Shown one piece after another: positions 4,862-31,169 of a stretch of DNA of 31,169 nucleotides. A program made the translations under genes and the position numbers. The notes beneath the pieces are model-generated. The model did no database searches and was not told the DNA's origin. It saw nothing but the letters and a program-made list of their open reading frames with translations. This DNA comes from Spirogloea muscicola (Eukaryota > Streptophyta > Zygnematophyceae > Spirogloeales > Spirogloeaceae): assembly GCA_009602725.1 (NCBI GenBank), contig WELB01000414.1:11098-42266 (forward strand). The letters run 5' to 3'. Each line of letters opens with the position of its first letter. Within the stretch, counting starts at the first letter, position 1.

Positions 4862-5390
4862 TCAGTACCCACGAGTGAGCACATATACATCTGACAAGCT
4901 AGTGAGGAGCCAGAGCACCACCACGCAAGCCATGAGCTTGGCCTGATGCGCGCCCAGCACGCTTGTGGATCGCGAGTGCCTGGGAGCGCTGCAGACTCGA
5001 CGAAAGCGGCACTCTATCGCAAGGACCATCCCCAAGGGGACCACTTTGATTTGTGTGCCATATTAATGGCCATGCTCCCCCAACCCCACCAGATCTTGGA
5101 CGATTGCAAGGCACGCGGTTAGAAAGGCTGCTAGCTGAAAATCGCGCAAATATGCGGATCACCCTGCCTGTGGGGAATTTGTCGTCGCGCTGCTTATGGA
5201 TGTGCACGGGGCGTTTGCGCTTGGCAGTCGGTAGCTGGACTGGCGTAGATTTGTAGCTGCGACAGCAAGCAGATCCGTTCCTTTTGGTCTGGCCTTCCAC
5301 ACCCATCTCCGCGTAGGAAGAGCGACGTCTTCTACCTTTCATTTGGGCAGGCCTTCCACAGACAATGGCCGCTTGAGGCTCATCCAAAGG
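4862..5390 (-). mobile_element. Truncated non-LTR retrotransposon ORF tail
   Basis: The minus strand ends in LTSLSDVYVLTRGY and a stop at 4862-4864, matching the C-terminus shared by fragments at 16415, 17704, 18284, 27750 and 30301. The upstream part reads with frame changes and is only loosely similar to the better copies, so this is a decayed copy. Identification as a LINE rests on the intact copies at 16603-17123 and 29196-30301. Confidence 0.5.
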
Positions 5391-5590
5391 GGTCGAGGGC
5401 TGTGAGAAACCAGCCCGAAGCCCGAAGCCCGAAGCCAGCCCAAGGGGCGAAGGGGCCAAAAGCACTAACATACAGATAAGCCAAGTACCACGAAGGATGG
5501 TCACTTTGAAGGAGCTTCATTTCTTTCATTGGCGTGGGACGAGCTCCTCTCACAGCCATCACCCCGTTTGGAAGGGCTACTTCTTCAAGG
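5275..5590. repeat. Diverged array of hairpin modules
   Basis: At least four degenerate copies of the roughly 70-bp module lie here: two in + orientation (about 5278-5330 and 5337-5380, each with CTGGCCTTCCACA or GCAGGCCTTCCACA), one inverted (about 5395-5440, GGGCTGTGAGAAACCAGCCC) and one more in + orientation (about 5519-5590). The inverted copy contains three tandem CCCGAAG units at 5414-5434. A weaker possible copy lies near 5660-5710. The array lies about 510-830 bp beyond the 3' end of the CYP38-like gene. Confidence 0.6.
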
Positions 5591-10416: not shown

Positions 10417-13162
10417 TCAGCCCCTTGATTGGCTGATTGCATAGACCAGTTGGCGGGCTGGATTGACAAAAGTATGAACAAGTGCCGCTAGACCACCCAC
10501 ACAGTGCAGTGGCTTGACCTGAATGACTTTCCCACCGCCACCACCGGTGCGCTCCTTCTTGCCCTCCTCCTCCTCCTCCTCCTCAGGAATGGTGGAGTCA
10601 GCAACCACCACGGCCTTGTCCACCACCTGGATGGCACCGCCTGATAACTGCCTGACCACTTCTTTGACTCGTCCTGGCTCCAGCCCCCTCTCTGCTGGTT
10701 CGTCAGTGCTCACACTCTCCGGCGGCTGCACAGGCATGGAGGCAGAGAAGCTGACTCCTAGCTTGTCCACTATGCCCGTGCAATATGCAGCCTCGACAGG
10801 AACTCCTATGAGTCAATGAGTGGCATGAGCGAAAAATCTGTGTCTGATCATCCTCGAACAGGTGCCCGCTCCCCAAAGCAGGCACGAGCACGTGGATGAC
10901 GACGGCAGAACAGCATCCTGTGCCCACCTCAAGTTTGGCTGCAGGTCCAGTGTCTGTTTGCACAGGCTGTGCCTTTGCAGCAGCCTCCACGGACTTTCTC
11001 CTCTCCTCCTCTGCAGCACGAAAGGTCCTCGGTGTCTCGGCTTTTCTCCCGGGCGGAGAGTACATGCTCTCCTCAGCAGCTGCAACATTCTGCACAAGCA
11101 CTCTCTCGCAGCTCCATTTTGGTGGACTGCAAACATCATGCCATCTCTACATAGCAGTCGGACTGGCTGAGCCTTGATGACATTGCTTCCACTTGATATC
11201 AAGTAAGGCTGGGAATTTTTGGCACACTCCATTGTGGTCCCAGCTACTTCACCTTCTCAACATCTGTGGCAAGACAAGAATGTGCCAATGGCAGCCGCCA
11301 CAGTCTACCAAAGAGTCAGGAAAGGACCCCAAAAGTCTAAGTTTTCTTCTACCCGGGCCTGAGCTATACCACTTCACCTCTCGGACGAGCTGCTCATATG
11401 CTTGTGCTCGTGACTTGACAGAGTCTTTCTTCTCCAACTTGGGCGTGCTCCCGCCCGAGTCTGCGGCAGGGGCGTCAGACCCCTCCATCTTCGGGGACGG
11501 GGTCTCAATCTCCGAGGCCGGCTTGTTGAGGAAGCCCGCAACCAGGCCGGATGGCACTGACGTGGGAGCTGCTTTTGCAGCATCGCCGTGCTCATTGGCC
11601 ACAGGCCCGGAGACCCGCTCAGCAGCCTCAGCTTTCTCCTTCTGGGATCTCTGGCGCTGTCACGACTTGAGAACTAGCTGTCAGCGGCAGCATATACGGA
11701 GTGGGAGTTCCTCACATGAACATCTCCCGTGCATGTCTCAAAATTCAGCCAAACTGCGGTATACAGATTCTGAAGAATCTGCACGGCCTGGGATCTCAAA
11801 GTCGGAGTCGTTCAAGGCATGCTTGTGGAAGTCAGCATGTATGCTGGACAAGGGTTTCTCCTTTCTGATGCAGGCACCGCTGCAGAGCTCAAACGCTAGC
11901 TTGCTGGCTTGTCCTAATAGACGCACAAGTGCAAGCATTCACTCGTGGCCAGGCTGAGTACCATCAGCTGGATCTTCTCGCGCTCGTCTTGGCTAAGGAT
12001 GAAGCTCAGCTTCAAATGCAGCCTTCCTCCGCCGTCGAGCTCAAAGAAGTCATCCACAATTCCCTTCTGCATAATGGTGGGCGTCGTGATGCCTGTACGG
12101 GTATGGCGAGCAACGTCTCTGTCAGGGGAGCAATGGGACAAGCAGCCACTGTTGCAGGCCGAAGTAGATACATGTGCCTGCCAAGCAGCCACATTTTTGG
12201 CCGTGGCGATGGCCACTCACTAGCAGTCGAGACTTTTGCCCCATTGTTGCCGCTGTCAATCAACGTCACGACCAGCGGCTCTTGCAGGTTGGGAACAGGG
12301 CTGCAAGGTCCAGGTTCAGGGGGGTGGCTGGTCAGCTCGTCGCCTGCAAGCCACGCGAGTGCATGGACACAGAGCTTCTGGCACTGCAGCTGGTGGTGGC
12401 GACTTGTGGTTCCCATTCTCGGCGAGCACAAGGAAGAACCTCACAAGTCATAGTCGAAGTTCCAGGGCTGCGTGTAGCTGCCATTCGTGGACTGCGGCGC
12501 TGTCTTCTGCTCCTCTTGACCCAGAGCCACTGCAACACAGGCACCGGCAGCCTGTCACCAGCCACTTTCATGAAGCTGCGACCTGGTCGGAAAGAGGCGT
12601 CGCATCGTCAGCCAGGTGCTAGCTCGAGCTCTCGGCCGGGTCCGCCGCCTCCGAAGCTCGCTGTGCAGGCTTCAGCAGCAGCGGCTCTTAGATACCTGCT
12701 CCGTCCAGCTGCTGTGAGAGCGGATGGCTAGGAGCTGCGAGAGCTCCATTCCTGCTGCTCCCTGGCTGCTACCAGCGGCTGCGACGGAGGCCCGCCCTCC
12801 GGGGCTCGCGGGTCTACAGCCTGCAGGCGAGGCAGAGTGATCCTGGTGGAGAGCGGCACACGAGCGACACAAGTGCGGCCGGGCGTGAGGGTACCTTTGA
12901 CGGCGTACTCCTTGCCTGCAGCACCGGGGGCAGGAGGAGCTCGAGTCAGGCGCAGAAAGGGCCCAATGTGGGAGGGTCGCGACGGCTGCCAGCCCCGTCT
13001 GCACTGTGGGCAGAGCGGGCAGGCAGAGACGGTGGCGGGCCCTCGGCGGCAGGCAGAGCAAGAGCAGGCCCGCGAGCGGCGCCGCCGGCGGGGAGGCGGA
13101 GAGAGCGGGGGGGGCGGCAGGCAGCTCACCGTCTCGCTGCGGCAGGTCGACGGCCTCCAGCA
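10417..13162 (-). CDS. Probable C2-domain protein (5' end missing)
   Basis: Probably a calcium- or lipid-binding C2 protein, inferred from short blocks only. The 33-nt exon 13162-13130 encodes LEAVDLPQRD, a typical first C2 strand. Later exons give GKEYAVKG (near 12930), NGSYTQPWNFDYDL (near 12450), LVVTLIDSG (near 12260) and DDFFELDGGGRLHLKLSFILS followed by QDEREKIQLM (near 12060-11990), which looks like the last C2 strand plus a helix. The C-terminal part is low-complexity: a Ser/Pro/Lys-rich exon starting at 11656 (RQRSQKEKAEAAE), exon 11089-10928 (ESMYSPPGRKAETPRTFRAA), then a final exon with a seven-Glu run from CTC repeats, ending at TGA 10417-10419. No ATG or first exon is visible; it may lie in 13165-13248 or in the assembly gap. 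Borders are approximate and the subfamily is unknown. Confidence 0.55.
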
Positions 13163-13294: not shown

Positions 13295-13428
13295 GGCCGG
13301 CCCCGCCACGCCCCCCCCCCCTTATCCTTGCTTTCTCGTGAGCACCGAAAAGCTTGCGCCCCTCCAAGCTGTCGTCTCGTGTGCAGCTGCCTGGTTGTCG
13401 TTCTCGGCACCCTCTGGCTCTTTGGACC

Positions 13429-13640
13429 TTGCCCATCCGTTTCGGGCTGGCCTTTCCCAGCCCCTACTCTCTACGGCCGCGCACTTTCCCAGCCAAGGTC
13501 TTTGCTTGACGTATCCCCATCCTATGCACCGCTGTGTCGCCTGAACCACTGTTCTTGCACGGCTGTGTGGCATCAGCGGCCTTTCGGCCATTCTGACCTT
13601 GTCCACTTCTCCTGGGCTGGCTTTCCACAGCCCCTCGGCC
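13429..13640 (+). repeat. Two hairpin modules between C2 and TDP2 genes
   Basis: Two + oriented copies. The stems are GGGCTGGCCTTTCCCAGCCC at 13444-13463 and GGGCTGGCTTTCCACAGCCC at 13614-13633. Each is preceded by ACCTTG(T/C)CCA(T/C) and a pyrimidine stretch. The second ends about 120 bp below the stop codon of the TDP2-like gene, so it could lie in that gene's 3' UTR or downstream flank on the opposite strand. Confidence 0.75.
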
Positions 13641-13763
13641 CCTCTGGATGAGCTCACCTTTCACCACCTCTGGCTTGCTGCGCCCGGCTATCTTCAAGGG
13701 GACTGCTTTCCAGCGGCTTTTCTTTCTGACGCCGGCGCTCGTTGCCCTCTCGCAGCGGGCCCT

Positions 13764-16079: not shown

Positions 16080-16300
16080 CTGCAGCTTTTCGAACGGGTG
16101 CTAACGGCTGTGGAAGGAAGTGAGCTCTTCCGAAGGAAGAGTCCGAGGGCAGTCGGCAAAATGGAGAAGAAAGATAGAAGTGGCTCTCCCAATGGAGGCA
16201 AGGGCTGTGAGAAGCCAGCCCGAAAAGAATTGACAAGGTTCGAAGGGGCCAAACTACGAGCTAAGCAGCGACTGCGGGTCCTGAAGAGGCTATGGCAGAA
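16080..16300 (-). repeat. Hairpin modules abutting TDP2 5' end
   Basis: The best copy has its stem at 16202-16221 (GGGCTGTGAGAAGCCAGCCC) with flanks CTCTCCCAATGG and AAGAATTGACAAGG. It is nearly identical in the same orientation to 31090-31169, and inverted to about 29770-29905. A weaker half-module (GGCTGTGGAAGG) lies near 16110. A degenerate one with a deleted right arm (GAGCTGGCAAAG) lies at about 16333-16347, 75-85 nt past the stop of the retroelement tail at 16415. Confidence 0.75.
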
Positions 16301-16414
16301 CGGGAGAAGAAAGTGCTCGCCCAGAGAGAAGAGGAGCTGGCAAAGAGTGGACAATGTCCAAAGCCAGAAGAACAAGGACTACACTACAAACCACAAGACG
16401 ATGCAGAGGGAAGC

Positions 16415-16602: not shown

Positions 16603-17123
16603 TCAAGTCAGCAGCCACAAGTCAGAAAGACTAGCCGCCGGAAACCAGACCCCTTGATGAAAGCCAGAGGCTGCAGAAAGAAAGAGAAAGCACGGCCAGC
16701 ACGCAGATGCAAGGCGTGGGCCATGGACCGTTGGATGATTATGGACAGGCGCATGCGACACTCCTGCGCGAAGCAGCCAGTGGCGTTGAAGTCGGCCTGC
16801 TCGCCCTGCCTGCGGGACACAGCTCGTCGCGCAAGCTGGGCCAACAGGTCTAGCCACCGAGACCCAAAACCCCAATGCACACGACGGGCCAGTGTGACGA
16901 ACTCGTCCCTCTCCCAATTGGTCGCGTACTTAGGCTCTTTGCCACGAGCCGCGTTTGCTGCTGCATGCCAAGCCTGTGCATGGCCTAGATTGGCAAGTTC
17001 CTCGAGGAAATTGTGGAACCGAGCACCTGCACAGCCAACGACATCGACTGCAGCTGGCAGGAGCTGATCGCAGTGGGAGTAGTCGACGTAGTACTGCAGC
17101 TTTCGTATTTCTGCACTGCCCAC
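16603..17123 (-). mobile_element. LINE ORF C-terminal domain, longest intact-frame copy
   Basis: A single frame of about 170 codons. From the middle it reads GKEPKYATNWERDEFVTLAR, VHWGFGSRWLDLLAQLARRA, then CRMRLSIIIQRSMAHALHLR and AGRA. This is the usual tail of L1-like reverse-transcriptase ORFs from protists and plants: a (K)KY stretch, a V-x-G-x-(F/W)-G block, then an R-(I/L)-S-x-x-(L/I)-Q-R helix. It aligns block by block with 29949-30301. The end has lost the typical SDLLLLTRGY form (it reads RRLVFLTCGC). No reverse-transcriptase domain lies upstream; a hairpin module (17138-17190) abuts it instead. Confidence 0.7.
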
Positions 17124-17137
17124 TGCGTGGTCAAAGG

Positions 17138-17190
17138 GGGCGAGGGCTGCAAAAAGCCAGCCCGGAAAAGTTCGACAAGGTCCAAGGGCC
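17138..17190 (-). repeat. Hairpin module upstream of LINE tail
   Basis: The stem is at 17144-17163 (GGGCTGCAAAAAGCCAGCCC on the + strand), followed by GTTCGACAAGGTCC. It is oriented as in 16202-16221 and sits directly at the 5' truncation of the 16603-17123 fragment. Confidence 0.75.
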
Positions 17191-17452: not shown

Positions 17453-17500
17453 TTGCACTAGCAGAAGCTAGTGCAATTGCACTAGCAGAAGCTAATGCAA
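17453..17500. repeat. Tandem pair of 24-bp palindromes
   Basis: Two adjacent 24-bp copies (17453-17476 and 17477-17500) differ at one base. Each is nearly self-complementary: TTGCACTAGC, a four-base loop AGAA, GCTAGTGCAA. The first copy is a perfect 10-bp stem. Confidence 0.9.
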
Positions 17501-17659: not shown

Positions 17660-17790
17660 ACAAATATAAAAGTCATGAAGTCCTTCCTGACTAGGGGTTA
17701 CTGAGCAGGCACCCTTGGTTTTCTCTACGCTTTCCAGCGCCTGTGGACCCTTGTTCGTGCTTTCGTGGGCTGGCCTTCCACAGCCCTCGC
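17660..17790 (+). mobile_element. LINE 3' end with 3'-UTR hairpin
   Basis: The + strand ends in SFLTRGY and a stop at 17702-17704. After 62 nt comes the stem GGGCTGGCCTTCCACAGCCC (17767-17786), preceded by TGTGGACCCTTGTTCGTGC. Orientation of the tail and hairpin agree, supporting the hairpin as part of the element's 3' UTR. Confidence 0.6.
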
Positions 17791-17859
17791 CCCCTTCCTT
17801 CCTGAAGATAGCTTGGAAGAGCTTCCTTCCGTGTCTTGAAAGAGCTGCCTCTTCTTCCA

Positions 17860-18150
17860 AAATGGGGCAATGGCTGTGAGAAGGAAGACTCTTCCAGTAG
17901 AAGAAAGAAACAGCGCTTCCAAATGGACTGGTTGCTGTGAGAGGCCAGCCCAAACGAATGGACAAGGTCGGAAAAGAAGAAAGTGCTCGCCCATAGAGAA
18001 GAGGGGCTGGCAAAGCCAGCCCTAGAAAGAATGGACAATGTCCGGTTGGCGCAAAGAGCAAGTAGAGGGCGATGGCTGTGAGAAGCGAAAGGAGAAGCAG
18101 CTTCTCCTTTCGCTCTTCCCAAGAGGAGGGCGAGGGCTATGAACAGCCAC
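17860..18150 (-). repeat. Tandem array of about five hairpin modules
   Basis: Successive modules of roughly 70-80 bp, all reading on the minus strand: half-copies at about 17869 and 18073; stems near 17934-17951 (GCTGTGAGAGGCCAGCC), 18004-18022 (GGGCTGGCAAAGCCAGCCC, a perfect 8-bp stem) and 18135-18148 (GGCTATGAACAGCC). Flanks repeat the CCCATAGAGAAGAGG and AGAATGGACAATGTCC elements seen at 29540-29600 and 30375-30440. Confidence 0.75.
18085..18115. repeat. Perfect 15-bp inverted repeat, one-base spacer
   Basis: The arms are AGCGAAAGGAGAAGC (18085-18099) and its exact complement (18101-18115), with a single A between. It sits inside a hairpin module and about 490 bp upstream of the TWD40-2 start. 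Confidence 0.95.
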
Positions 18151-18283
18151 CGCGTGGAGATGCAGGGCGTGAGCCGGAGCACTGCAGGAATGGAGTGTGT
18201 ACTACTGATGGAGGGCCTGTGCGGCCAAGTGCGAAGGCACGCACATCGACAGGTGTACATCACCTGCTGCTAAGCTGACCCGC

Positions 18284-18390
18284 TCAGTAACCACGAGTCA
18301 GCACATAGAGGTCGCTAATTGATGCCCGAATACCGGACGGCAAGCGACAAGCTCTTGTGCCACCAGCTAAGGCTCGACCAGCTTTCGGAT
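18284..18390 (-). mobile_element. LINE tail close to TWD40-2 promoter
   Basis: The minus strand reads CRLPSGIRASISDLYVLTRGY with a stop at 18284-18286. The conserved end is clear, but upstream similarity fades quickly. It lies 215-320 bp upstream of the TWD40-2 ATG, in opposite orientation. A weaker stem (18135-18148) follows about 135 nt past the stop. Confidence 0.55.
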
Positions 18391-18604
18391 GCAACGCGTG
18401 AGCGTGAAGGGAAAAAGCGGAGAGTTCGCATGCGGCGCATCCGTGGTGTGCCGTCTCACAGGCCCCCGCCCCCAGTGGAAGTCGTTCATCGTTTGGGAGT
18501 GCTCACGTTCTGGTGGAGCAACGAGGAGGCCGCCGCGAGGCGCGAGGGCGGCAGAGAGCGAGGGCGCCGCGGGGCGGGGGCCGCGGGCGACCCCGGGCGC
18601 CGCC

Positions 18605-21600
18605 ATGGAGTGGCTTCCCCGCGCGCACCTGGCGCTGNTTGCCCCGCCGAGCAGAGTTCGATGTGCTCACGGGATGCAAGCTGTCGACGATCGACATGGG
18701 AGGCGTGATTGTCCAGGTCGCCTACTCGCCGGCAGGCGGTCACGTCCTGGTGGCCATCCTGGACGTGAGCTCCTCCCCACCCCCCCAGCCCCCTGCCAGA
18801 TGCTCAGCCCGCTCTGCACGCACATCCTGGCAGCTGCCGGGGCTGGCCTGGGGCTTGGGAGCTCAACCCGGCAGCTCCGAGCTGCCAGGAGAGGCCGTGC
18901 AGTTGTGGGCGGGGCCTGACGGCAGCTGAGGTGGCTCTGCGCCGACGCCGCAGGACTGGACGATCCGGGCGTGGGACGTGGACGCGGAGCTGGTCAGCCT
19001 GCTCTACGCCCCTGCGGACAAGAGGACCGAGAAGCTGGCCGTCGGCTCCCTGGAAGTGCACATTGCTCTTACCCCGCTCCGACCGCTCCTCTTCTTTGGC
19101 GCGTACAGACGCACTAGCGTCAGTGGTGAGATGACCGTGGCAAGGCGCAAGCTGACTGCATCACTGTGGACACCGTTGCGCACCTTGGTGGCACACCTCT
19201 TGTGCTGCAACTGACCCCGTCAGTCCACCTTGTGGGAGCTGCAGTGGTTGGGATCGGCGATGGCGTACGCCCCTCAATGAGAATAAAGACGGACATCAAG
19301 AAGCCTGTCACGGGGCTGGCGTGCCACCCTCGCCAGCCCATCCTTGTGAGCTCACACACAGCTGCAGCAAGCAACTATGACTAGGCATTTGCTTTGACTT
19401 TACATTAAGTCCAGCGCAAGCAAATTGCTCGACCCTGAGTCCAAGCAGCTTTTCTGAGGGTTTAGACTCGCCCCTTCTGCTAATTGTACTGTGCTTGCAG
19501 TATGTTGCCTATGCTGAGGGCGTCATTCGGGCATACAACATTCTTTCGTTTGCAGTACTATACACACTAGCTGGTAAGACTGTCCATGCGGCTTCGGCAA
19601 CTGCACTGGAAAGTGTCTGCACTGAGCCAGCTTGTTGAGCAAGAGCTCAGCTGTTGGCTTCTAGGATCAATAGTAATCCGTTGCTGAAGCCCGCTGCTTT
19701 GATGATCAGGGCTCCTTCATGGCCACCTGACCATTCCCTGATGTTCACCGCGTGTGGTCTCTTTCTTTCCTGCTCGTGCCCGGTGAACAGCAGAACCGAG
19801 TGTTAAGCTTCTTGGAGCTGGTGCGATTGCTTTCCATGCCACGTTGGATCACATCTTTGTGGGTGATCGTGGCGGTGCCATCTTGGCTTGGGATGTGTCC
19901 ATCCAATCACGGCCCAACCTGGTCGGCTTGTGAGTTGTGCTGATTGACCTCTGCTGCCTCTGCTAAGCATCTACGTACGCTTGTGTGGTCACCTGTACAC
20001 TGCTCGCCTTCTTTGAATCTCAAGAGGTTCAGCATCTTGCTCTTTGTACCCAGGTCCCAGGTCTAGGGCAGTGCCTCCTGATGGAGTTTTGTGTGGAGAG
20101 CATGAGAGAGCATGAAAGCATGGTCAGTAGCAGAAGCGAGCTGGATCATAGCACACGGTTGCACGGAGAAACTTGATCTGACCATCTGTCTGTAAGGTGA
20201 TGTCAGGACCATGGCAAGCACCACTCCGCTGGTCCACGTGGCGTGGCATTCTTCGCTGCAGCTGTTACTCTCACTTACACGGGACGGAGCAGTGAAGGCT
20301 TGGCGAGTCCGGATTTTCCAGAATCCTAATCACCCTGTGCAACGGTCCAACTTTCTCGAGCCCGCAGGTCCGCTGCGGATTAGCACAGCACCATCGAGGA
20401 TGTTTAAGTTATCTGCCATTCATTTCTTGCTAGCTGACCTCTGCCTTCTGCTTACAGACATGCTGTTTAATTTGCAAAAGAGGGTTTGCCAGGCAGACGC
20501 TCTGGCTGTGTGGGTTGATTTAGAGTATTTACTTGGACCACAATTCTGCAGGAGTAGGCGCGCTAGACATCAGCTATGTGTACGCACGCGGTGGCAGACA
20601 ACTCCCGCACCCTGTACCTGTGCTACGTGGCCTGTTTGTTCACCCCAGACTGAATGCCCTCACTGTGCTACTGGCAGTAAGCAACCTTCATCCAACTATT
20701 CGCCGCTTGCTGGGGGAAAGTGCTGTGTGTTAGCTCTCTGTAAGCGGATGCTTGCAAATCCCATGCAAGATGCTGCTTACATTGACAAGCTTTCAGCTGA
20801 ACAAGGTCAAGCTTCTTTGGCACAGAAAGACACGGAGGAAGATCAGGAGGTGAAGAAGAAGCTCATTGATATGAGCTATGAGTCCAGGAAGCATCTCTTG
20901 GCTGTTCTTCAAAGTGCCAGAGGGTCTCCAGGTTCTTTGCATCCGCTCCTCATTCTGAGCAGCAATATTGCATCTTCTCTTGCTGATTCTGATGATGTGG
21001 TCTTGCTTGCCATCCTTTATATATTCTGCATTGTCCAGCACACTGAGGTTCTGACTGCATGATCAGATGGCGTGATGAGAGAGAAGTTAGCTGCCCTTGG
21101 AGCTGCTGGCTTGTCAGAGCAAAACCTACAGCAGCAGCTCATACTGTCACGTGGTCAGTCCAAGTGAGCATTCGAGCAGATAACATGTCTTGGTCGAGCT
21201 TGTGTGTGGCTGCCCATGTATGGCAATGAATAGTGATAAGAGACTGATTGCAACTTCTCACTTTGCTCTGGCACTCAGAATCATGCAGCCAACTTTGGTC
21301 GATCTCGCCCGCAAAGTGGGACTCCATGGGGTGCGTCTGTTGCTCACCAACCATTGAGCTTAGAGCTGCGATGTTGGGACTACGAGATTAATCACCTCCT
21401 TGTCACTGTTGCTGACAAGATCAGTGCCGAAGCGTGCAGGCTATGAGAGACACAGCTTCTGAGGCAGGGCCACTTCACGGGCTTCCGCTCTTAAGCATTG
21501 CAGATGTCAGTTTTCCCCTTCGAGATGCCCCGGTCTGTCAGGTGATTAGCATCTCACTCTGTTGCTGGTAACGCCTCTGACCACAGATTCTTCACGAGGG

Positions 21601-24600
21601 ACAGGACAAGCAGATTACCAACGACCAGCAAAGTGAAATGGAGCCAACATGCCTGTGCTTGAGCACACTGTAATGATCTCGTGTTCTGGCGGGGTGCAGC
21701 CATTCCATCAGCACTTGGCGTTCTTCAACTCCAAGCAGCCAATATTTCAGTATCCTTCTCGCACAATCTTCATGGATGGGTGCAACTTGCTGGCCTACAG
21801 CCTCGTGACGGGTGATTATTACCTCATGAAGAAGCTCTCTCCTGCTGTGAGTATCCCATGCTTGGAAGTTGCTGCAGAATGATGGTTAAGCGCCCATTTG
21901 TGCAAGCGAGGAGGCTTTGGGCAACTGCTTACCTCGTCGCGTCTCCTGCAGGCCATGTCAGGAGGTGAAAGGCTGGCCAGGCACATTGTGCACAGCCCGT
22001 TGCAGAGTGCTTGGCTCATATTCTTTGAGTGTCGCGGAACTCCAAGTGAGGTGGTGCTATATTGTGCGATTGATTCTGCCTCGACCACCAGCGACACTGT
22101 CACAACCTTTGCTGGTCAGCAGATCTAGTAGCTTGCCACTCTGCCCATATTTCTTTTGGCAAGCCATCACTTTGACGTGCTACAGAGGGGTATTTGCAAC
22201 GCGGCTGATGCACTGCTCCACGTCAATAGTGTGTTTGGCTAACAAGATTAGAGATAAGCAATAAACGATAAACGATAGAAAAGCATCCACTCTGCGCAGG
22301 TAGGGATGGTTGTTGGACAGGCCATCACGACAACCACTATGCAATTCTTGAAGAGGATGGCTTTGGCCTGACGCTATACCCACTGGAGAACGCTGTGGTC
22401 CCTCCCGCACTTGACGTCGCCCAGGTTGCTCATAAGCCTGTGGAAGCTGATGGCGCCCTGGATGCCAGCATATTCTCTGATGCCAGTGCATTTTCAGCCA
22501 ATACATTTGATAGGCAAGCTGGGCTGGTGGCTCCACTTCAGGAGCCCGCCCAACTGACGTTCGAAACACCAGTCCAGCGCATCTTCTGCACCCCCTTAGG
22601 TGGGCACCTCAACTCCAGGGGCCCGGCCTACTCCTTGTCAAGCTTGCTAGCCCGCCTAAAATTGTCTGCTCTTGCACTAACGACTTTCCTGCTGCATGAT
22701 GCCAGAATATGTAATTGCATATGTCATTATTGGGAGCCACATGGGCCTAGCATATGTCAACCCCGACGTCCATCACGGTGGGAGTGTTGACTTTGTGGAT
22801 AGCAACCAGAGTGGGGCCACATTAGCTACACGGCCAGATCTGAGCAGAAGTCTCAAGCTTTGCCCTCTGGAAGCTGTCCTTCAGGCAAGGGTGCAATCCA
22901 AATGACTGCCCCGTACTTGCACGCGGGCTTAGATGTGAATAGTCCAATCAACTTGCTTGCTCATGAGCGAGTGGCATCTTCAGACCGGGCCCTCGTCCGT
23001 CCAGCTTACACCATGAAGTTGTGAGTGGCAGGTGGAGTGGCAGGAGACGGCCACTGGCTTTGTGGCAGGCATCATCACACCTCTTCGTGTGCTGATTGTA
23101 GACAGCAATCTCCAGATATTGTCCTCCACTAGTACAACATATGACTGCGACTCTCCTGCCATATCCTTACACACACCTGCACAGCTGGCAAATATGGGGA
23201 GGGTGTTGTGTTGCATGTTCTGGTGGTTCTTGGACTATTGCCGTGCCTCTGCTTTTGCGCTGCAACTCCATTGATTAAGCGGGTCGTGATCCTTGACGGA
23301 CAGTTGCACTTTCTCTCTCTTGTCTGGTCGGGCCCGGCTCTGCTCTTCTCAACGTCGACAGTAGTTGCCATGCTTGGTTGGGACAATGTCGCACATCCTT
23401 TGCTCACACTCGACAGCCCTTCTTCTGGTGAATGCTGCTGAAAGCTACTACCCGTGACGTCCTACGAAGCCCTCAACATGAGCAACTTACATTGAATCTC
23501 TTTGATAGTAGTGTGTGGTCTTGAGAGGTGGGCTGAAAGAGACTGATCTGCGGTGCCGAAGTGCATTGCAGTGCTATTGGGCGTGTTGAATGACCGTGTC
23601 CTACTGGCAAGTCCAGGAGAGGGACAGAGACAAAATGCTGTTGGCACTGTGTATGTCGATGTTCGTACGCGGTTGCTTGGTCTTTTGGAACCACTCCTGG
23701 TAGGTTGGGTAACTATGCTCAACGTCATGGACCCCCATGTGGATCTTGCGGAGGTCCTTTATCAACTTACATCTCGGTGAGGGCTGGCCATTCCCATTTT
23801 AGTCATCTTGTATTACCATATCTCCATTGGTGATCAGATCGATGAACCAGCTGGTCTTGACATTGGCATCAGCTACATTGCACACTGGTGAGAGTTGCTG
23901 CTACCGTTTGCAGTTTTGACAGCGTAAGAATCTCTCCACGGGTACTCAGTGTGCTCAGCAAAGGTCCTCCCATTTGTGCCAGTCTTGCCGTCGAGCTTGC
24001 TCAGAGTGGCCCCCAGTTTCCACCTGTAAGCTCGTACAATCCTCAATAATAATGATCTGCATTCTGACAATCAATCCTATGCATCTAGGACCAATGCAGG
24101 AGTTTGTGAAACTTCTAGATGCTTCGCTTCTAGTCTGACAGGTGGTGTCTTGTCTGCAACTCTGCTAATCACAGTGCTAAAAGTAGGACTGAGGCCAGGA
24201 CCTCTTCCCACTATCCTGGTGCCGCAGGAACTGCGATGCTCATACGCTGCAAAAGCCAGACAATTTACGGCAGCTTTGGCTATTCTTCGAGATGAATTCC
24301 TCAGATCCAAGGATTACCCAAAGTGCCCTCGCACGTCCCGACTCTTCCAGCGGTTTAGAGAACTTGGTCGGACATGCATCATGTAAGCTGCCACTAGAGC
24401 TGCTACTGTTGACCCTGCTACACCTGAATAGCATGTGCACTTGCCTGACTTCCTCCAGGTTTTGCAGATTGTCATCTCATGCTCGTGTGTGCGTTGAATC
24501 TGGCTGTCCTCCAGGCATGGACAGTTTGATCTTGCAAAGGAGGCCTATGAGATGGCTGGTGATTACGAGAGTCAGCTTGACCTGTACCTGGCGCACTTGA

Positions 24601-27419
24601 ATCCTAGCGCTCTAAGACGCCTCTCTCAGAAGCTGGACGAAACCCCCAGCGTGGCTTCGGGAGACTTGAAGAGGCAAGTGGAAAGAGTCCTGTTGGTGCG
24701 CTCGGCGGGCTGGAGCAAGGGGGGCGCCTTCACGTCTGCCCAGGGGGAGAGCATGGCTCCTCGAGAGGCGAGCTGGGCTGGGGGGAACTGGACGCTGACC
24801 ACGACAAATGCAGCGGACGACCCCAAGAAGCCTCGCCCCAAGTGGGGCTTGGCAGCAGAGGTCACAGCCTACATGAAGGCGCCCGGAGGCGCCATTCCTG
24901 TTGTAGACGCAGACTCATTAGGGGTTTACTTGGGCATTCAGAAGGGCAGGGGATCCGTGGTCGAAGTGCCAGAGATGCTCCCCAAAGGTGCAGCTTCTGG
25001 AACTGGCCTCCTCCTTGGGGGTGCAGCTGCATCAGGGCCCAGCATGACACGGTCCTCATCGACATCCTCATCTATCAGGGCTGACAAGGCATTTGGAGCC
25101 TTGGGGGTGATGAGTGCCTTCCAAGATGCAGGCGATGACACAGAAAGTGAGGCTCAATCGCAGGCAGCTGCAGACTTCAAGTCAGGAATGCTTTCCATGG
25201 GTGACATGACTTCCAGCGACGATGAGAGCACCGGGGGTTCAACGCCCTCCTCCAGGAAGCGAGCCATCAAGGTGCGGATCAGAGACAAGCCGGTGGGAGC
25301 GGGCCTTGGCAAGGAAGCTGTGGACGTCAACAAGGTCAAGGAAGCCACCCGGCAGTTCACTCTTGGGGAAATCCCAAGATCTGGACGGCTTGTTCCACCA
25401 ACTGGGCCTCAGGCTGCCACCGGAATGCTTGGTCTGGGTGGCCAAGCAGATGCCAGCGGCTCAGGCCAGCCTCTGGGTACCTTCACTCCGCCTCCTCTGT
25501 TCTTCGGTGGCCCTGGTCCTGTGCCTAAGCAAGCACCAGGCTACTCAGGCCAGGCTAGCCAACTCCCCCCTCAATCTCCTCCGCCGCCCCAAGCACTGCA
25601 GTACCTCCATCCTCCGTTTCCTTCAGCATACCTATCCCCTTCACGGCCGAACGTTGCATCACCTGCCGGCCCTCAGATAGCTCCAGGGCTTGTATATATG
25701 CAGCAGCCTCCTGAGCCTGCTCCAATCGGGAGTTTTCAACCAGCCTATCAGCCTTCCTATGTGGGGCCTGCCGTGGGCAGCGACATGCCGCAGCAAGTTT
25801 CCCCCAACCAAGCGCCAGTGAACTATGTGCAGCAGACTCATCCTGTTCTTCAGGATGGCTCTTTGGGCTTCGCTCCTCCCACTTTTGGGCCCCCACCACC
25901 CGCAACTCACGGGTTGCCACCAGGCGGCGCATTCCTCCAACTGCCTGCCCCACCCCCATCTCAGCAAGGTCCAGAGTTGGATGGCAACACGGAGCTTGCC
26001 ATGTTGGCCGGAATTCCGCCACAAGCACTGCTGCCATCTGCAGCCAGCAGTGACGTACTCGAATCGTCAAGTGCTGTGGCTGACACTGCATCGGCCTCTG
26101 CATCGACAAGTGGAGCAGTGTTGCAGGGTTTACTGGAGGCCTCAACAGGCAAGAGTGAGCAAGTTAAGGTCCCTGAGGTTTCTACAGACAATGTCAAGCC
26201 CGGGCAGGTGAGCTACATTTTCGGGAGCATGGATGGCTGTCATCTGGGGTCAACAGCCTCCATCTTCCTTCACTATTGCATAGCCTTTCATATGTGTGAT
26301 GCTATCGTGACCCAGGTTGTCTCTCATGCTGTTGCTGGTGGCTCAGGTTCCGAGTGGACAATCAGCAGCTGTAGCGTTCAAGACCGGGCTTGTGCACATC
26401 GAAGAGAATCGCTTGCGAGATGCCTTGCGGTGTTTCGATGAGTCATTCTTGGCCCTTGCCAAAGATAGATCGACGGGCAAGGATGTCAGCAGTCAGGCTG
26501 AGATTTGCGCACACTACAAGGTCGCCGTGCTCCTTTTGCAGGTGTGTAGAGCTTGTTCTCTTACCTTGTGGCAGGCCATTTTGTGGTTTCAAGCACTTCC
26601 TGCTCTGCCCTCTTTGGTGCTATCTTACTGACTGGGAGCATTGCGCCTGTTCCACCTCTCTAATAGTACAGTAATCTCGAAGTACTCTTGCATGTTGGTG
26701 GCAGGAAATTGCAGGGTTAGAAAAGGGAGAGGGCCAGGGGATGATTGTGGGTGCAAAGGAGGAGCAGGCTCGACTTGCGCGCCACTTGGCAAGCCTCCCT
26801 CTTCAAGCCAGGCATCGCATCAGCTGTGTGCGTACTGCGATCAAGCGCAACATGGAGGTCCAGAACTATGCCTATGCCAAGCGCTCTTTAGACCTCCTCC
26901 TTTCAAAAGCACCTGCTGCCAAACAGGCAGAGCTCAAGGCCCTTGTCAAGTGAGTACCCACGGCTTCTGCGACGCCAACAGATGGTTTTCTTGTGTCACT
27001 TTAGCCTCCTGATTCATTGTTATGATATTGTCCTTTAATGCCGTCTTGCATATTGTAGGTGGCATCTCATCTGTTCGTGTTATAGCATGACAGCCGTTCT
27101 TTGTCTACTCCTCTCACATCTAGATTCCTTCCGCTTGCACGAGATTGTTGCTCATTTATTGGTTGGTCTACCTGGTATTTTGCACAGCGTCTGTGTGCAG
27201 CGAGGCCTTGTAAACCGCACCATCAGCGGACAGGAGAACCCGTCATCATTCTGCCACTTCACGCTGGGCAGACTTCCGACAATTGGGCATGATATGTGCG
27301 ACACTTGCCATTCCAAGTTTTCCCCCCTCCAATCACCCGGCTGTCCTATATGTGGCATGGGCACAGTGGCTCGAACTGATGCACCCGCTGCTATTGGCGA
27401 CTTTGCTTCACCATTTTGA
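18605..27419 (+). CDS. TWD40-2: TWD40-2-like subunit of the TSET/TPLATE complex (multi-exon)
   Basis: Large WD40 coat-like subunit of the plasma-membrane TSET/TPLATE endocytosis complex. The start ATG begins MEWLPRAHL, as in plant homologues. Beta-propeller exons give FDVLTGCKLSTIDMG (to 18764), DWTIRAWDVD (18954-19125), RIKTDIKKPVTGLACHPRQP (19245-19345), YVAYAEGVIRAYNI (from 19501), HIFVGDRGGAILAWDVS (near 19870) and NPNHPVQRSNFLEPAG (to about 20368). Later blocks are ESRKHLLAVLQSARGSPG, PFHQHLAFFNSKQPIFQYPS, WQETATGFVAG, LLGLLEPLLVGW and DEFLRSKDYPKCPRTS. Exon 24515-26207 (564 codons) starts HGQFDLAKEAYEMAGDYES and contains a long Pro/Gln/Ser-rich linker. The last exons, 26347-26541, 26705-26949 and 27188-27419, encode AFKTGLVHIEENRL, RNMEVQNYAYAKRSLDLLLS and a C-terminal CDTC...CPIC zinc-knuckle. 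About two dozen exons; some middle borders are not resolved. The frame breaks at an N (18638). Confidence 0.95.
18638..18638. other. Single N with frame break in TWD40-2 exon 1
   Basis: The frame from the ATG does not continue into the conserved FDVLTGCK block: reading straight through stops soon after. In plant homologues roughly 35 residues separate these two points, so this N probably stands for missing sequence rather than one base. Confidence 0.85.
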
Positions 27420-27749
27420 GCCCATGGCTCCAGTCAACAGCCTTGCTATCTAGACCTTGCAAAGCGCGTGGGAGTTGGTGGGGTCCAGCCACAGCAATGC
27501 TGCTGCGCTTTGGCAGGTAGGAGCAGCGCACTACCCTTGGCTGAGATTCTTTGAGGAAAAGCGGCAAGTCAGCTGCTAGTCTCTCCTTTGCCCGGCAGTA
27601 CCTGCGATTATTCTTTGCTCCGATGAATTGCCTCTGTGTTGATTCAGTTGGGGACGAAGGAAGGCATTGTGCGTAACATGCATGGAGCCAGCCACCAGAT
27701 TATGTCATAACTTTAAGGCGTGCATACAGGCTAGGCAGACAGGGCGCTC
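27420..27749. other. Downstream flank of TWD40-2
   Basis: The 3' UTR and flank of the TWD40-2 gene. I see no gene, tRNA or clear repeat here, and no convincing TGTAA polyadenylation signal close to the stop. Confidence 0.5.
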
Positions 27750-27830
27750 TTAGCACCCCCGTGTCAGCAGTAGGAAGTCAGATAAGCTGAGGGGAGGAAA
27801 AGGGGGCGAGGGCTGTGGAAGGCCAGCTCT
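27750..27830 (-). mobile_element. LINE tail joined to a hairpin module
   Basis: The minus strand reads LSLSDFLLLTRGC with a stop at 27750-27752. About 30 nt upstream of the SDFLLL block, in the same orientation, lies a hairpin module (GGCTGTGGAAGGCCAGC at 27811-27827). The ORF end is therefore fused directly to repeat sequence, probably by deletion or nested insertion. Confidence 0.6.
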
Positions 27831-28150
27831 TGGAGAACTGGGACAGCAGAGTGAGCAGCCGGGCTTCGATGCCGTCGAGTCGCTTGCTCGGGTGCACAGG
27901 ATGAGCCTTGCCATCTCCCTGCAGCATTCCTTGGCTTCTGCCGTGCACTTTCGGGCAGGCCGCACCTTGGCTGCTGCCCCCGGGCTCCGCCAGGGTGACG
28001 GTTTTCCGCCCTCCAGTCACTCCGAACTGCAGCTGCTGACTAGACGTTGCTGAGCGTTTCTGCACAAGTCACAGATGCTTATGCTTGCACCTTCTGGCCC
28101 TTTCAGACCGCGTTCGTTTCTTTCGGCTGGCCTCTCACAGCCATTGCCTT
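27830..28150 (+). mobile_element. 5'-truncated LINE 3' end with hairpin
   Basis: The + strand reads FDAVESLARVHRMSLAISLQ, then HSLASAVHFRAGRTLAAA and SHSELQLLTRRC with a stop at 28051-28053. The stem GGCTGGCCTCTCACAGCC (28125-28142) begins 71 nt after the stop, preceded by a CGTTCGTTTCTTTC pyrimidine stretch. One of the clearest ORF-end plus hairpin units here. Confidence 0.72.
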
Positions 28151-28776
28151 ACATTGAAGGGGCTGTTTCTCCTTGGCTGCTTTTCTTTTGAGAAGCAGCT
28201 ACTCCGGCAGCGGAGTTCCCATCCCTCCAGAAACTCAGCAGACAAAGTGTAGAGGGCACATCTAAAGGACTGCATCTGCACAACCAGAGGCGCCGCCTTG
28301 GACCAGGAGGCACAGCGAAAGTATCACTACACCAGTACGAGTCGGTGAGGCTGAGGCAAGGCCTACGCATTGCAACTCTCCACACGCTGTTTTGTTACAA
28401 GAGCCTCAGAGCGTACGAGCCCTTTGCGCTTTGATCTTTCTGAGCCATAGCAGATATATCGCCTAATAAGATAGAGACAAGGCTGCAAACGAAGAAGATG
28501 GCTGCTCAACATAGAAGCCATGAAGAAGAATAGGCAACACATTGCAAAAGTGGCAATGTGAGGGACAATGGAAAAGAATGCAGTAAAAGAATAGGGAACC
28601 TTCATACACATCAGGACCATTGCTTCTTATCGAGATTTCCGACATACTCTTGGACAACCTCTTAGAAGACAACGCACTCACACAAATGCTAGGACTTGTC
28701 GTCGTATACGAAGAAAACTATGACTTTCATTGCACACTGCTTGTACATACGTTTCCTATACCAACAGCAGCTCCAG

Positions 28777-28801
28777 CTACTATCGCTTTGCGCGATAGTA
28801 G
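28777..28801. repeat. 10-bp stem hairpin
   Basis: CTACTATCGC (28777-28786), a five-base loop TTTGC, and the exact complement GCGATAGTAG (28792-28801). Both sides are flanked by CAGCTCCAGCT-like direct copies. Confidence 0.95.
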
Positions 28802-29072
28802 CAGCTCCAGCTCCCATGAGTTTGGCACCTTCTAACAAGAATTTGGTTGCTTTATATTTCCAAAACAATGGTCATGAAAGATTAAACACGACGTTTCTAG
28901 GTGGACGACATCCATTGTGTGCTATGCGTGTAATGTCACGCTCTCACTCAGCCGCTCCGTGACGCCTGGACCAAGTGTTCAACAGGACTCTGACCTGCCT
29001 CCACTTGCTAAGCGGATAGATTCCTCTTATTTGCTCCTTGCAAGGCACAAGCAGTGTGCATGCAGATGCAGA

Positions 29073-29106
29073 CATGACAATCCATGACAATCCATGACAA
29101 TCCATG
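29073..29106. repeat. Tandem 10-bp repeat, three units
   Basis: Three perfect CATGACAATC units (29073-29102) followed by a partial CATG. Confidence 0.95.
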
Positions 29107-29195
29107 CAACAGTGTCTCGGTCTACATAACTCCTCCTTTCATTAACTTCCCATTAAACAATCTAGACATTCAGGATTTACTCGCCACCCCTGTCA

Positions 29196-29523
29196 TTGAC
29201 GAGGGCAGTGATCGAGGTTATCAGGACGGCGGTCCACCGGCTCCTGGGCCTCCTCCCTCCCTGCCTCGTCGGGGTCCAACAGTGCGAGTGCGGTGCCCGC
29301 CACGATGACCCTGCGGCGCTGGTTGCCCTTATGCTCCGCTGCACGCACGGGGGCGAGCGGACCGGTTCACACGACCTCCTGCGAGACGCCATGCAGGGTG
29401 TGTTCCCTGGAGGCCGGCTACAAGGTGGCAGTAGAAAACACAACTATGCCCATCCAGCGGGGCGCCGACGGACAGGTTCACACCCGCCGCGCTGACCTAG
29501 TTGCCCGGAGGAGGTCCGCGTAA
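29196..29523 (+). mobile_element. LINE ORF zinc-knuckle region, frameshifted
   Basis: The + strand reads CECGARHDDPAALVALMLRC, then THGGERTGSHDLLRDAMQGV; after a frameshift near 29415 it continues as EAGYKVAVENTTMPIQRGAD and VHTRRADLVARR. This is the C-terminal pattern of L1-like ORF2 proteins: C-x-C-G, a second Cys, GGERT-x-x-H-D-x-x-R-D, then R-A-D-L-V. It directly precedes the tail domain at 29949 in family order, but about 420 bp of repeat sequence separates them. Confidence 0.72.
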
Positions 29524-29539
29524 ATCGAGAGAAAAGCGC

Positions 29540-29950
29540 GCCCATAGAAAAGAGGGGCTGGCCAAGCCAGCCCAAAAAAGAATGGACAATGTCCAAAGCC
29601 AAAGCAAGAGGAGCCGGAGAAAGGACTACACTACAACATACTGCAGAACACAGAAACGATGCAGAGGAAAGCTCAGTACCCACGTAAATCGCAGATGTGG
29701 TGACTGCAGGTTGCGTCGACTCCGCCAACCCCGTCAAGTCGGCGACGCTCGTCGGGCACGCGGGCGTTCTGCCATAGCCTCTTCAGGCCCCGCAGTCGCT
29801 GCTTAGCTCGTAGTTTGGCCCCTTCGAACCTTGTCAATTCTTTTCGGGCTGGCTTCTCACAGCCCTTGCCCTCATTGGGAGAGCCGCTTCTTCTCTTCTT
29901 CTGCTTCTCACAGCCCTTGCCCCCATTGGGAGAGCCACTTCTTCTTCTTT
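29540..29950. mobile_element. Inverted repeat-element insertion splitting the LINE
   Basis: 29540-29690 matches 16310-16430 in the same orientation: hairpin GGGCTGGCCAAGCCAGCCC at 29555-29573, and a minus-strand ORF end reading DLRGY-stop at 29673-29675. 29770-29905 matches 16200-16295 inverted (stem 29846-29865). A partial second module follows at about 29899-29945. The stop-to-hairpin distance of the minus copy is 99 nt, the same as in the + copy at 30301. Confidence 0.65.
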
Positions 29951-30480
29951 GGCGGCTCGTTTAAAGGAGCGCAAGTACGCTGACCACCCCCCAGGCGATG
30001 CCTTCGCGACCCTGGCCGTTGACGTTCACGGGGCCTTCGGCAGCGACTGCTTGGATCTCCTCCAGCGGCTTGGCCGGCAGGCCATCGAGCGGCGGCCGGG
30101 TTTCGCCAGGCTTCAATGCTGCCGGCTTCGTCGCTCAGGTATCCCGAATGAGATTGGCGGTCTCGCTCCAGCGTTCCTTGGCTCATGCGGTCCACACGCG
30201 CGCTGGCCGCGCTATGGCCGCTGCCTCAGAGTCTCCGGCAGTGAGCCGCTTTTCCTGCTTCGGGTTATTCTGATTTGCTGTTGCTCACTCGTGGATACTG
30301 AGCATCCATCTGCATCATCTCGTGTCTTGGTGTGTAGTTGTGTCTTTCCGGGCACTGTTTTGTGGCCTTTAAGGCCTGTGGACATTGTCCATTCTTTTCT
30401 GGGCTGGCTTTGCCAGTCCCTCTTCTCTATGGGCGCGCACTTCTTCTTTTCGGGCTGGCTGTTTCCCGCAGCGAGGGCAC
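29949..30480 (+). mobile_element. LINE ORF tail, stop codon and 3'-UTR hairpin
   Basis: The + strand reads RKYADHPPGDAFATLAVDVH, GAFGSDCLDLLQRLGRQAIE, then (frame changes) GFVAQVSRMRLAVSLQRSLA, HAVHTRAGRAMAAAS and DLLLLTRGY with a stop at 30299-30301. The stem GGGCTGGCTTTGCCAGTCCC (30401-30420) begins 99 nt later, after GGACATTGTCCATTC, and is followed by CTCTTCTCTATGGGCG and a half-module (about 30456). This is the best reference copy of the family's 3' end in the window. Confidence 0.72.
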
Positions 30481-30600: not shown

Positions 30601-30890
30601 CTAGGCTAAGGCGTATAAGAAGGCGCCCGGTGCACCTGGAACGAAAGCAAGTGCTCGCCCATAGAAGAAGCTACGAAACACTCAGTAACCCCTACTGAGC
30701 CCCCTTCTCGTACTTTGTTCATTCTTTTTTGGGCTGGCTTTTCAGCCCCTATTCTCAATGGGCGAGTCCTTACTACTAAGCAGCCGCAGGTCGGAGATAC
30801 TAGTCTCCTGGTAGCGAGTCCCCTGTCTAGGGCCAGAGGCTGCAGCTACAGAAGAAGAGGGCGCGCGGTGCGCTTGAAATGAAAGCGTGG
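30600..30890 (-). mobile_element. Further LINE tail fragments and one hairpin module
   Basis: A minus-strand LSRGY-stop occurs at 30682-30684; past it comes CTATGGGCGAGCACTT, the hairpin's usual right flank, with the hairpin itself missing. A second minus tail lies at about 30765-30890 (VAAASGPRQGTRYQET, SISDLRLLSS) and contains the CGCGCGGTGCGC box shared with 4772. Between them is a + oriented module with stem GGGCTGGCTTTTCAGCCC (30731-30748). Confidence 0.55.
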
Positions 30891-31089: not shown

Positions 31090-31169
31090 TAGAAAGAAGT
31101 GGCTCTCCCAATGGGGGCAAGGGCTGTGAGAAGCTAGCCCGAAAAGAATCGACAAGGTTCGAAGGGGCC
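31090..31169 (-). repeat. Hairpin module cut by window edge
   Basis: The stem GGGCTGTGAGAAGCTAGCCC is at 31121-31140 with flanks CTCTCCCAATGGGGG and ATCGACAAGGTTCGAAGG. It is almost identical to 16168-16248, so the element continues beyond the right edge. Confidence 0.8.

What the first reader, a model, noticed from the sequence alone, without database searches (positions are those of the whole stretch)
17660..30480. A conserved 3'-UTR stem-loop in an apparently undescribed algal LINE family
In at least four fragments the ORF end (variants of LLLTRGY-stop) is followed in the same orientation by a GGGCTGGC...GCCAGCCC-type stem: 62 nt (17704 to 17767), 71 nt (28053 to 28125), 99 nt (30301 to 30401) and 99 nt (29673 to 29573 on the minus strand). 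A weaker case lies about 135 nt past 18284. The loop and lower stem vary while the outer stem is kept, and a TTGTCCATTCTTTTC-like stretch precedes it. Stringent-type LINEs such as eel UnaL2 use a 3'-UTR stem-loop recognised by their own reverse transcriptase. I infer the same role here.
Basis: partly seen in the sequence, partly recalled or inferred. Interest (0 to 1): 0.75.

Follow-up and report, generated by a model that had tools for sequence, protein, structure and literature searches.

The report
Conserved 3' tail of R2-like LINEs

Summary
The hairpins are at the stated places, and there are far more than four: 16 tail matches (E<1e-4) lie in the window, none in the reversed control. In the host genome (153 Mb) four anchored tail patterns with the stem letters left free give 7,246 exact hits, none for the reversed patterns. 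Loci chosen by protein alone carry the tail at one distance: 51 of 80 chosen by the ORF end, 33 of 40 chosen by RT. Between four families the rest of the 3'UTR is at shuffle level and fourfold sites are 43% identical, but the 61-63-nt tail is 73% identical. Copies are 5'-truncated, and 8 of 24 have flanking repeats of 8 nt or more. So this is a conserved 3'-terminal tail, probably recognised in target-primed reverse transcription (inferred). Corrections: the element is not L2-like; its RT and C-terminal domain match R2 best. The stem shows no compensatory change (0 of 8 pairs in 79 tails), so the proposed covariation test neither supports nor refutes the fold. An outer stem exists in two classes only and fails a swap test. 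Some families with the same ORF end lack this tail. RT binding is untested.

The parts
29949..30301 (+). decayed, frameshifted fragment of the LINE ORF C-terminus (DAFATLAVDVHGAFG..., ends LLLTRGY-stop)
   Evidence: 150 scored matches among 3990 first-look candidates genome-wide for this 46-aa stretch
30377..30445 (+). 3' tail, class A; hairpin 30401-30420
   Evidence: profile E 2.8e-16; RNA fold z -2.5
29528..29597 (-). 3' tail, class A; hairpin; downstream of the minus-strand ORF end that stops at 29673
   Evidence: E 2e-15; fold z -2.8
29823..29892 (+). 3' tail, class B (GGGCTGGCTTCTCACAGCCCTTGCCC)
   Evidence: E 2e-17; fold z -0.2
29895..29943 (+). ultra-short class B tail copy, begins inside the hairpin
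   Evidence: E 2.9e-6, model 30-69; 95% direct repeat of 29852-29894
30707..30774 (+). 3' tail, class C (GTTCATTCTTTT..., AATGGGCGAG)
   Evidence: E 8.8e-15
31094..31163 (-). 3' tail, class B
   Evidence: E 1.3e-15; 95% complementary to 29817-29892
17977..18045 (-). 3' tail, class A-like
   Evidence: E 4e-17
17905..17973 (-). 3' tail next to the one above
   Evidence: E 4.9e-12
   Evidence: E 4e-5; fold z -0.2
   Evidence: E 8.2e-5; fold z -0.6
17118..17186 (-). 3' tail
   Evidence: E 7.3e-8
16175..16244 (-). 3' tail
   Evidence: E 2.3e-17
16307..16362 (-). 3' tail
   Evidence: E 6.8e-7
13421..13490 (+). 3' tail, D-like hairpin GGCTGGCCTTTCCCAGCC (13445-13462)
   Evidence: E 7.3e-13
13591..13661 (+). 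3' tail
   Evidence: E 1.2e-7
5374..5420 (-). partial 3' tail
   Evidence: E 3.7e-6
17687..17704 (+). ORF-end relic (LTRGY-stop)
   Evidence: read; 17687-17709 and 18279-18301 form an inverted pair
28036..28053 (+). ORF-end relic (LTRRC-stop)
   Evidence: read
18284..18319 (-). ORF-end relic of another family (ISDLYVLTRGY-stop) without this tail downstream
   Evidence: reverse-strand position 12886; no significant tail

Best explanation
The hairpin is the core of a 3'-terminal tail of about 62-70 nt shared by at least four families of a single-ORF, R2-group (restriction-like endonuclease) LINE. In the element the tail lies 48-88 nt past the stop codon and runs into a TTC-rich end. Most likely the element's own protein binds this tail (TTGTCCATTCTTTT box, GGCUG-loop-CAGCC hairpin, GGGCGAGC box), positions the end at a nicked target and starts target-primed reverse transcription there; incomplete synthesis leaves the many short 5'-truncated copies. 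Shown here: position, copy number, link to the ORF, conservation, 5' truncation, short flanking repeats, and R2-like RT and endonuclease domain. Inferred: binding by the protein, that the hairpin fold (not only its letters) is read, and priming by TTC microhomology.
For: Loci chosen by protein only: 65 of 80 carry a plus-strand tail (59 of 74 without loci used as profile seeds), 51 of 80 within one 60-nt band (band set after seeing the positions), 0 of 80 in reversed controls; RT-chosen 33 of 40 (32 of 35 with under 50 N) at 110-270, 1 of 40 on the minus strand there. Conservation: 23 between-class pairs of 8 elements, mean aa 0.69, fourfold sites 0.43, rest of 3'UTR 0.50 (shuffled 0.48), tail 0.73 (shuffled 0.49); tail above fourfold identity in 23 of 23. 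In these 8 the ORFs group as the tails do. Anchored copies 1,211 + 1,408 + 2,811 + 1,816, reversed controls 0. 17 of 26 tail copies reach the stop codon or beyond, 9 stop inside the UTR or tail (recounted); flanking repeats of 8 nt or more in 8 of 24 against 3.3% of 552 mismatched pairs. R2-like protein. R2 needs 3'-end sequence to bind RNA and start TPRT (PMC3414825, abstract and passages); ZfL2 ORF2 binds its tail stem-loop (PMC4176376, abstract).
Against: No compensatory change in the hairpin: 0 of 8 pairs in 24 tails, covariation score no higher than shuffles, and 0 of 8 pairs in 79 tails, so conservation of letters alone would explain it. The 24 tails were chosen by me from the 79 for diversity, leaving out decayed ones, so '24 of 24 paired' is flattered; in the 79 the five core pairs all stand in 69. 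Fold z-scores are strong in classes A and C (-2.8 to -5.5) but weak in B and D (-0.5, -0.7). Families E, F and G with the same ORF end have other 3' ends, so the tail is not required by every relative. 15 of 80 ORF-chosen loci show no plus-strand tail. Two of the eight long flanking repeats (L156, L157) are TTC runs that could be the tail itself. Tail bounds were set by conserved motifs, which favours the tail.
Confidence: 0.72

Rival explanations
1. The tail is read as sequence, not as a fold: the protein (or the priming step) needs the letters TTGTCCATTCTTTT, GGGCTGG, CCAGCCC and GGGCGAGC, and the complementarity is secondary.
For: Stem letters are almost invariant; one-sided changes only, no two-sided change. 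Linear boxes outside the hairpin hold invariant columns too. B and D fold no better than shuffles.
Against: The five core pairs stay complementary in 69 of 79 ORF-linked tails while the loop changes in length and sequence; in those pairs 37 changed cells keep a G-U pair and 11 break it, but 26 of the 37 are one shared change, too few events for a test.
Confidence: 0.3
2. The tail is mainly an RNA-processing or stability signal (3'-end formation, export), conserved for expression rather than for reverse transcription.
For: It lies at the element's 3' end and no polyA follows in the copies read.
Against: Insertions end right after it and some copies contain almost nothing else (57-91 nt in L153, L154, L160, L163, L164, L166, L171, L175), which ties it to where reverse transcription starts.
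Confidence: 0.12
3. The families share the tail because tails were recently exchanged by template switching or gene conversion, not because of selection.
For: Copies nest and sit side by side, which would favour exchange.
Against: In the 8 elements with full ORFs the tails group as the ORFs do: 82-94% identical within classes, 66-82% between, as in vertical descent.
Confidence: 0.08
4. Many tails belong to a SINE with an independent head that borrows the LINE tail, and the ORF link is secondary.
For: Tail copies outnumber RT candidates (7,246 exact anchored tails, against 1,744 first-look candidates).
Against: 17 of 26 sampled tail copies run back into the LINE ORF end and the other 9 stop in its UTR or tail; no recurrent foreign head was seen by eye (not searched systematically).
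Confidence: 0.05

Closest known systems
R2 (Bombyx, Drosophila, bird and turtle R2) and the RLE group of LINEs
   Same: Single ORF, RT, C-terminal restriction-like endonuclease fold; 5' truncation; 3' end needed to start TPRT in R2 (PMC5678591, PMC7650587, PMC3414825, passages)
   Different: Found dispersed through the genome; tail about 62-70 nt; Cys-His cluster before the endonuclease has another spacing; Myb motif not looked for
HERO clade and non-site-specific R2-like elements of cockroach
   Same: RLE-encoding LINEs without a fixed target are known: HERO (PMC4640811, passages), cockroach R2-like elements (PMC7650587, title and passages)
   Different: Clade not resolved here: no reference RTs outside the PDB were on hand
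Stringent-type LINEs UnaL2 and ZfL2-1/2 (L2 clade)
   Same: 3'-terminal stem-loop; UnaL2 ends in a short repeat, TGTAA (PMC3747384, passages)
   Different: Not R2-like (APE endonuclease, recalled); hairpin binding was shown by experiment for ZfL2 (PMC4176376, abstract), not here
Plant L1 lineage ME1 with conserved 3' hairpin, and Chlamydomonas L1-1_CR with SINEX-3_CR
   Same: Conserved last ~45-80 nt shared between elements (PMC3747384, passages)
   Different: L1 clade; compensatory changes were reported for the plant hairpin, none found here; SINE partners known there, none seen here
Dualen/RandI of green algae
   Same: RLE-bearing LINEs (PMC4640811, passages) present in Chlamydomonas and relatives (PMC8226300, passages)
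   Different: Dualen carries APE and RLE; no APE domain was found in this element

Membership tests
RLE (R2-group) LINE | single ORF without a separate ORF1 | tested here: met
   4,284-bp elements with 5' ends set by two identical copies (C176:82016-86299, C48:26621-30904, to the GAGC of the tail); the open frame covers the 5' end, leaving no room for an ORF1
RLE (R2-group) LINE | RT related to R2 RT | tested here: met
   profile A1 matches 3 distinct PDB sequences at E up to 1, all R2 proteins, E 3e-7 to 4.2e-6; single-sequence search found none; RVT_1 in 10 of 10
RLE (R2-group) LINE | C-terminal restriction-like endonuclease fold (alpha-beta3-alpha-beta) | tested here: met
   model of low to middling confidence (mean pLDDT 52.6, best blocks 60-82); Foldseek ranks 1-7 are R2 chains, E 6.8e-6 to 4.9e-3, but TM-scores only 0.27-0.35; VIA Z 10.4 to 8.3 for ranks 1-5, all R2, next 1y88 (protein of unknown function, not R2) at 8.1; D97, D112, K142 invariant
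RLE (R2-group) LINE | CCHC knuckle CX2-3CX7-8HX4C before the endonuclease | tested here: inconclusive
   an invariant Cys-His cluster is there but reads C-x1-C-x12-H-x3-C
[quoted passage not shown]
   C-x2-C-x12-H-x3-C motifs by eye; Pfam zf-C2H2 below cut-off, E 0.06 and 0.1; Myb not tested
Dualen/RandI | APE endonuclease in addition to RLE | tested here: not met
   no APE domain by Pfam in the 1130-aa frame or in three N-terminal extensions
Stringent-type LINE | conserved 3'-terminal tail with stem-loop | tested here: met
Stringent-type LINE | own protein needs and binds the tail | not testable with these tools
   needs binding or retrotransposition assays
Stringent-type LINE | compensatory changes in the stem | tested here: inconclusive
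   0 of 8 pairs changed on both sides in 24 and in 79 tails; 3 pairs never vary in the 24
L2 clade (UnaL2) | APE endonuclease | tested here: not met
   no APE domain; R2-like RT and endonuclease instead
Rfam RNA family | match at gathering score | tested here: not met
   0 matches in the window and four element 5' regions

The most novel reading that the evidence does not exclude
An R2-group LINE lineage in an alga gave up a fixed target and split into many families that kept one short 3' tail; the tail plus a TTC-rich microhomology lets any copy prime almost anywhere, and because families share the tail they may mobilise each other's RNA, flooding the genome with tail-only insertions of 40-170 nt.
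Probability: 0.25. Interest if true: 0.62.

Novelty: new member of a known kind. Interest (0 to 1): 0.45.

Why it matters
RLE LINEs are described as generally site-specific (PMC5678591, passages), and 3' recognition has been worked out mostly in R2 and L2. A dispersed R2-like group with a compact, nearly invariant 3' tail, and natural families in which that tail is replaced (E, F, G), offers a small RNA with a matching protein for binding and TPRT tests, and may explain part of the short repeats in this genome (share not measured).

Tried and rejected
Covariation as proof of the fold: fails for the hairpin. The 5' palindrome GGACATTGTCC: one pair fails in 12 of 24 tails, no compensation, rejected as a conserved helix. 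Outer stem UGUCCAU/AUGGGCG: 47 of 53 class A and 8 of 8 class C tails have 5 or more outer pairs, but 0 of 4 B and 2 of 6 D (71 of 79 tails used, 8 dropped because the script found no clear hairpin); in the swap test the A and C 3' strands give more outer pairs with every 5' strand than the B and D ones do, the D 5' strand binds A or C far better than its own, and only B is slightly better in energy with its own (-8.3 against -7.2 and -7.1), so there is no clear sign of coevolution. A 3-bp helix at columns 51-53/59-61, proposed by RNAalifold beside the core, is 98.6% paired and its covariation score exceeds all 500 shuffles, with one pair changed on both sides in 4 cells; it is short, has one class-wide event and competes with the outer stem, so it is left open, not claimed. 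Helix 43-46/59-62: no covariation and it competes with the hairpin. First RT hits: those translated with long frames (L002, L007, L011) look like Ty3/gypsy elements, unrelated. Larger model: too poor to use (pLDDT 43.5). A 124-aa translation of the window fragment (a frame that runs past the frameshift) found no relatives in prokaryote contigs. Host species not established: Haematococcus papers were looked at only because of similar size and short nested repeats; nothing ties the window to them. Print status: in the titles and abstracts listed by searches (open-licence library, best rows only; one search returned none) I saw no paper on this element; that does not show that none exists.
Full report
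Observation. The four named hairpins and their distances to the ORF ends are in the sequence as described. The core pattern occurs 11 times in the window against 1.11 expected by shuffling. A profile of 13 tails from other loci finds 16 tails in 31 kb at E<1e-4 and none in the reversed window. The 'weaker case' near 18284 is not significant and belongs to a family with another 3' end.

Genome-wide. The window lies in G000 (153 Mb, 471 contigs). TTGTCCATTCTTTTC with up to 2 mismatches has 7,926 + 8,130 hits, control 109 + 109. Four patterns anchored outside the stem, with the stem letters free, have 1,211 (A), 1,408 (B), 2,811 (C) and 1,816 (D) exact hits and none for reversed patterns (the first 100 places of each were listed). 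The ORF end has 3,990 first-look candidates (150 scored) and the N-terminal-to-RT query 1,744 (84 scored): fewer towards the 5' end, as truncation predicts, though these counts are rough.

Link to the ORF, without choosing by hairpin. Of 80 loci chosen by the ORF end, 65 have a plus-strand tail (59 of 74 without loci that supplied profile seeds), 51 of 80 starting within positions 371-430 of the oriented locus, a band set after seeing the positions; 25 of 80 have a minus-strand tail at scattered places, and reversed sequence gives none. Of 40 loci chosen by RT, 33 have the tail at 110-270 (32 of the 35 with under 50 N); misses among these 35 are L097, L098 and L119.

Conservation. Eight elements with full ORFs fall into four tail classes (A 2, B 1, C 3, D 2). 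For the 23 between-class pairs, means are: protein identity 0.69, fourfold-degenerate sites 0.43, 3'UTR before the tail 0.50 (shuffled 0.48), tail 0.73 (shuffled 0.49); the tail exceeds fourfold identity in 23 of 23. No chance level was computed for fourfold sites. The tail bounds were set by conserved motifs, which favours the tail somewhat. The UTR and tail of A2 come from a sister copy.

Structure. From the 79 ORF-linked tails I chose 24 for diversity, leaving out decayed ones. In these the five core pairs form in 24 of 24; three never vary and two vary to G-U only (2 and 4 tails). The outermost pair fails in 4, the seventh in 4 and the eighth in 14; no pair changes on both sides, and the covariation score is not above shuffles. 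In all 79 the five core pairs stand in 69 by aligned columns and in 68 by a pattern test; again no pair changes on both sides, with 37 one-sided pair-keeping cells (26 in one pair) and 11 broken cells in the core. So the arms are kept, but the data cannot tell fold from letters. Single-sequence folding is better than shuffles in A and C (z -2.8, -4.0, -5.5) but not in B and D (-0.5, -0.7). In A and C an outer stem joins the TTGTCCAT and ATGGGCG boxes; a swap test gives no clear sign that its strands coevolved across classes. A 3-bp helix past the hairpin covaries more than shuffles but is too small to lean on.

Insertion. 26 tail copies were fetched with flanks. For 24 a 5' break could be set within the locus, but L155, L158 and L172 run on into LINE sequence or N, so their ends were not reached; the other 21 copies are 57-444 nt long. 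17 of 26 reach the stop codon or beyond and 9 end in the UTR or tail (recounted). Direct flanking repeats of 8 nt or more occur in 8 of 24 against 3.3% of 552 mismatched flank pairs; two of the eight are TTC runs. Four of the eight begin with CTTC (L150, L153, L159, L167), which suggests priming at TTC; this was not tested further. L160 shows by eye a TGATATTAAA repeat with about 12 extra bases at its 5' side, and L017 shows the same site without it.

Protein. Two identical full-length copies give element ends 4,284 bp apart with one ORF. There is an RT domain; a profile of 10 relatives matches only R2 retrotransposon proteins in the PDB at E up to 1. The C-terminal domain model, of modest confidence, has R2 chains as its best matches in Foldseek and in VIA-align, though with low TM-scores and with a chain that is not R2 only just below in Z. 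No APE domain was found. Of the hallmarks of RLE LINEs given in PMC5678591 (passages), ORF plan, RT and endonuclease fold are met; the zinc knuckle has a different spacing, the N-terminal fingers are seen by eye only, and Myb was not tested.

Limits of the finding. ORF ends of the same kind also occur with other 3' ends: E (SSSDFLLLTRGY) keeps a GGCTG/CAGCC hairpin but not the rest of the tail; F (SDLYVLTRGY) has in some copies a GGCC-N4/5-GGCC inverted repeat; in G (SDLFVLTRGY) I saw neither (by eye). In all DNA held, 104 of 148 recognisable ORF ends have the canonical tail within 190 nt, a biased sample since part of it was fetched by tail.

Verdict. Real, abundant, conserved and at the 3' terminus: most likely the recognition tail of an R2-like LINE. 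The UnaL2 comparison holds for how it may work, not for what it is. Neither binding nor the fold itself is shown. No Rfam family matches the window, and the listings named in Tried and rejected showed no description of this element.

Noticed in passing
29895-29943 and 17905-18045: Tail copies of about 40-70 nt lie side by side; one begins inside the hairpin of the tail type just upstream, as if reverse transcription stopped almost at once.
   Followed up: partly
L094, L095, L100, L017, L179; window 18284-18319 minus: Families E, F and G end their ORF in the same motif but carry other 3' ends with different or no obvious hairpins.
   Followed up: partly
L160 (C1:1555815-1556716) and L017: An insertion with a TGATATTAAA repeat and about 12 extra bases at its 5' junction; L017 shows the same sequence without the insert.
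   Followed up: no
L002, L007, L011: Ty3/gypsy-like retroelements (by eye; LTRs not looked for), two of them nearly identical over 1003 residues.
   Followed up: no
C-terminus of the 8 full ORFs: The ORF tip reads SxSDLxLL(T/S)RGY right up to the stop in 7 of 8 (the B element ends RLLTRNH); such conservation of a C-terminal tip may be functional.
   Followed up: no
window 17453-17500: Near-perfect palindromic tandem of 24 bp (TTGCACTAGCAGAAGCTAGTGCAA).
   Followed up: no
window 24552-26441: 629-aa open frame with a Pro- and Gln-rich stretch and no Pfam hit at E up to 0.01, possibly host exons.
   Followed up: no
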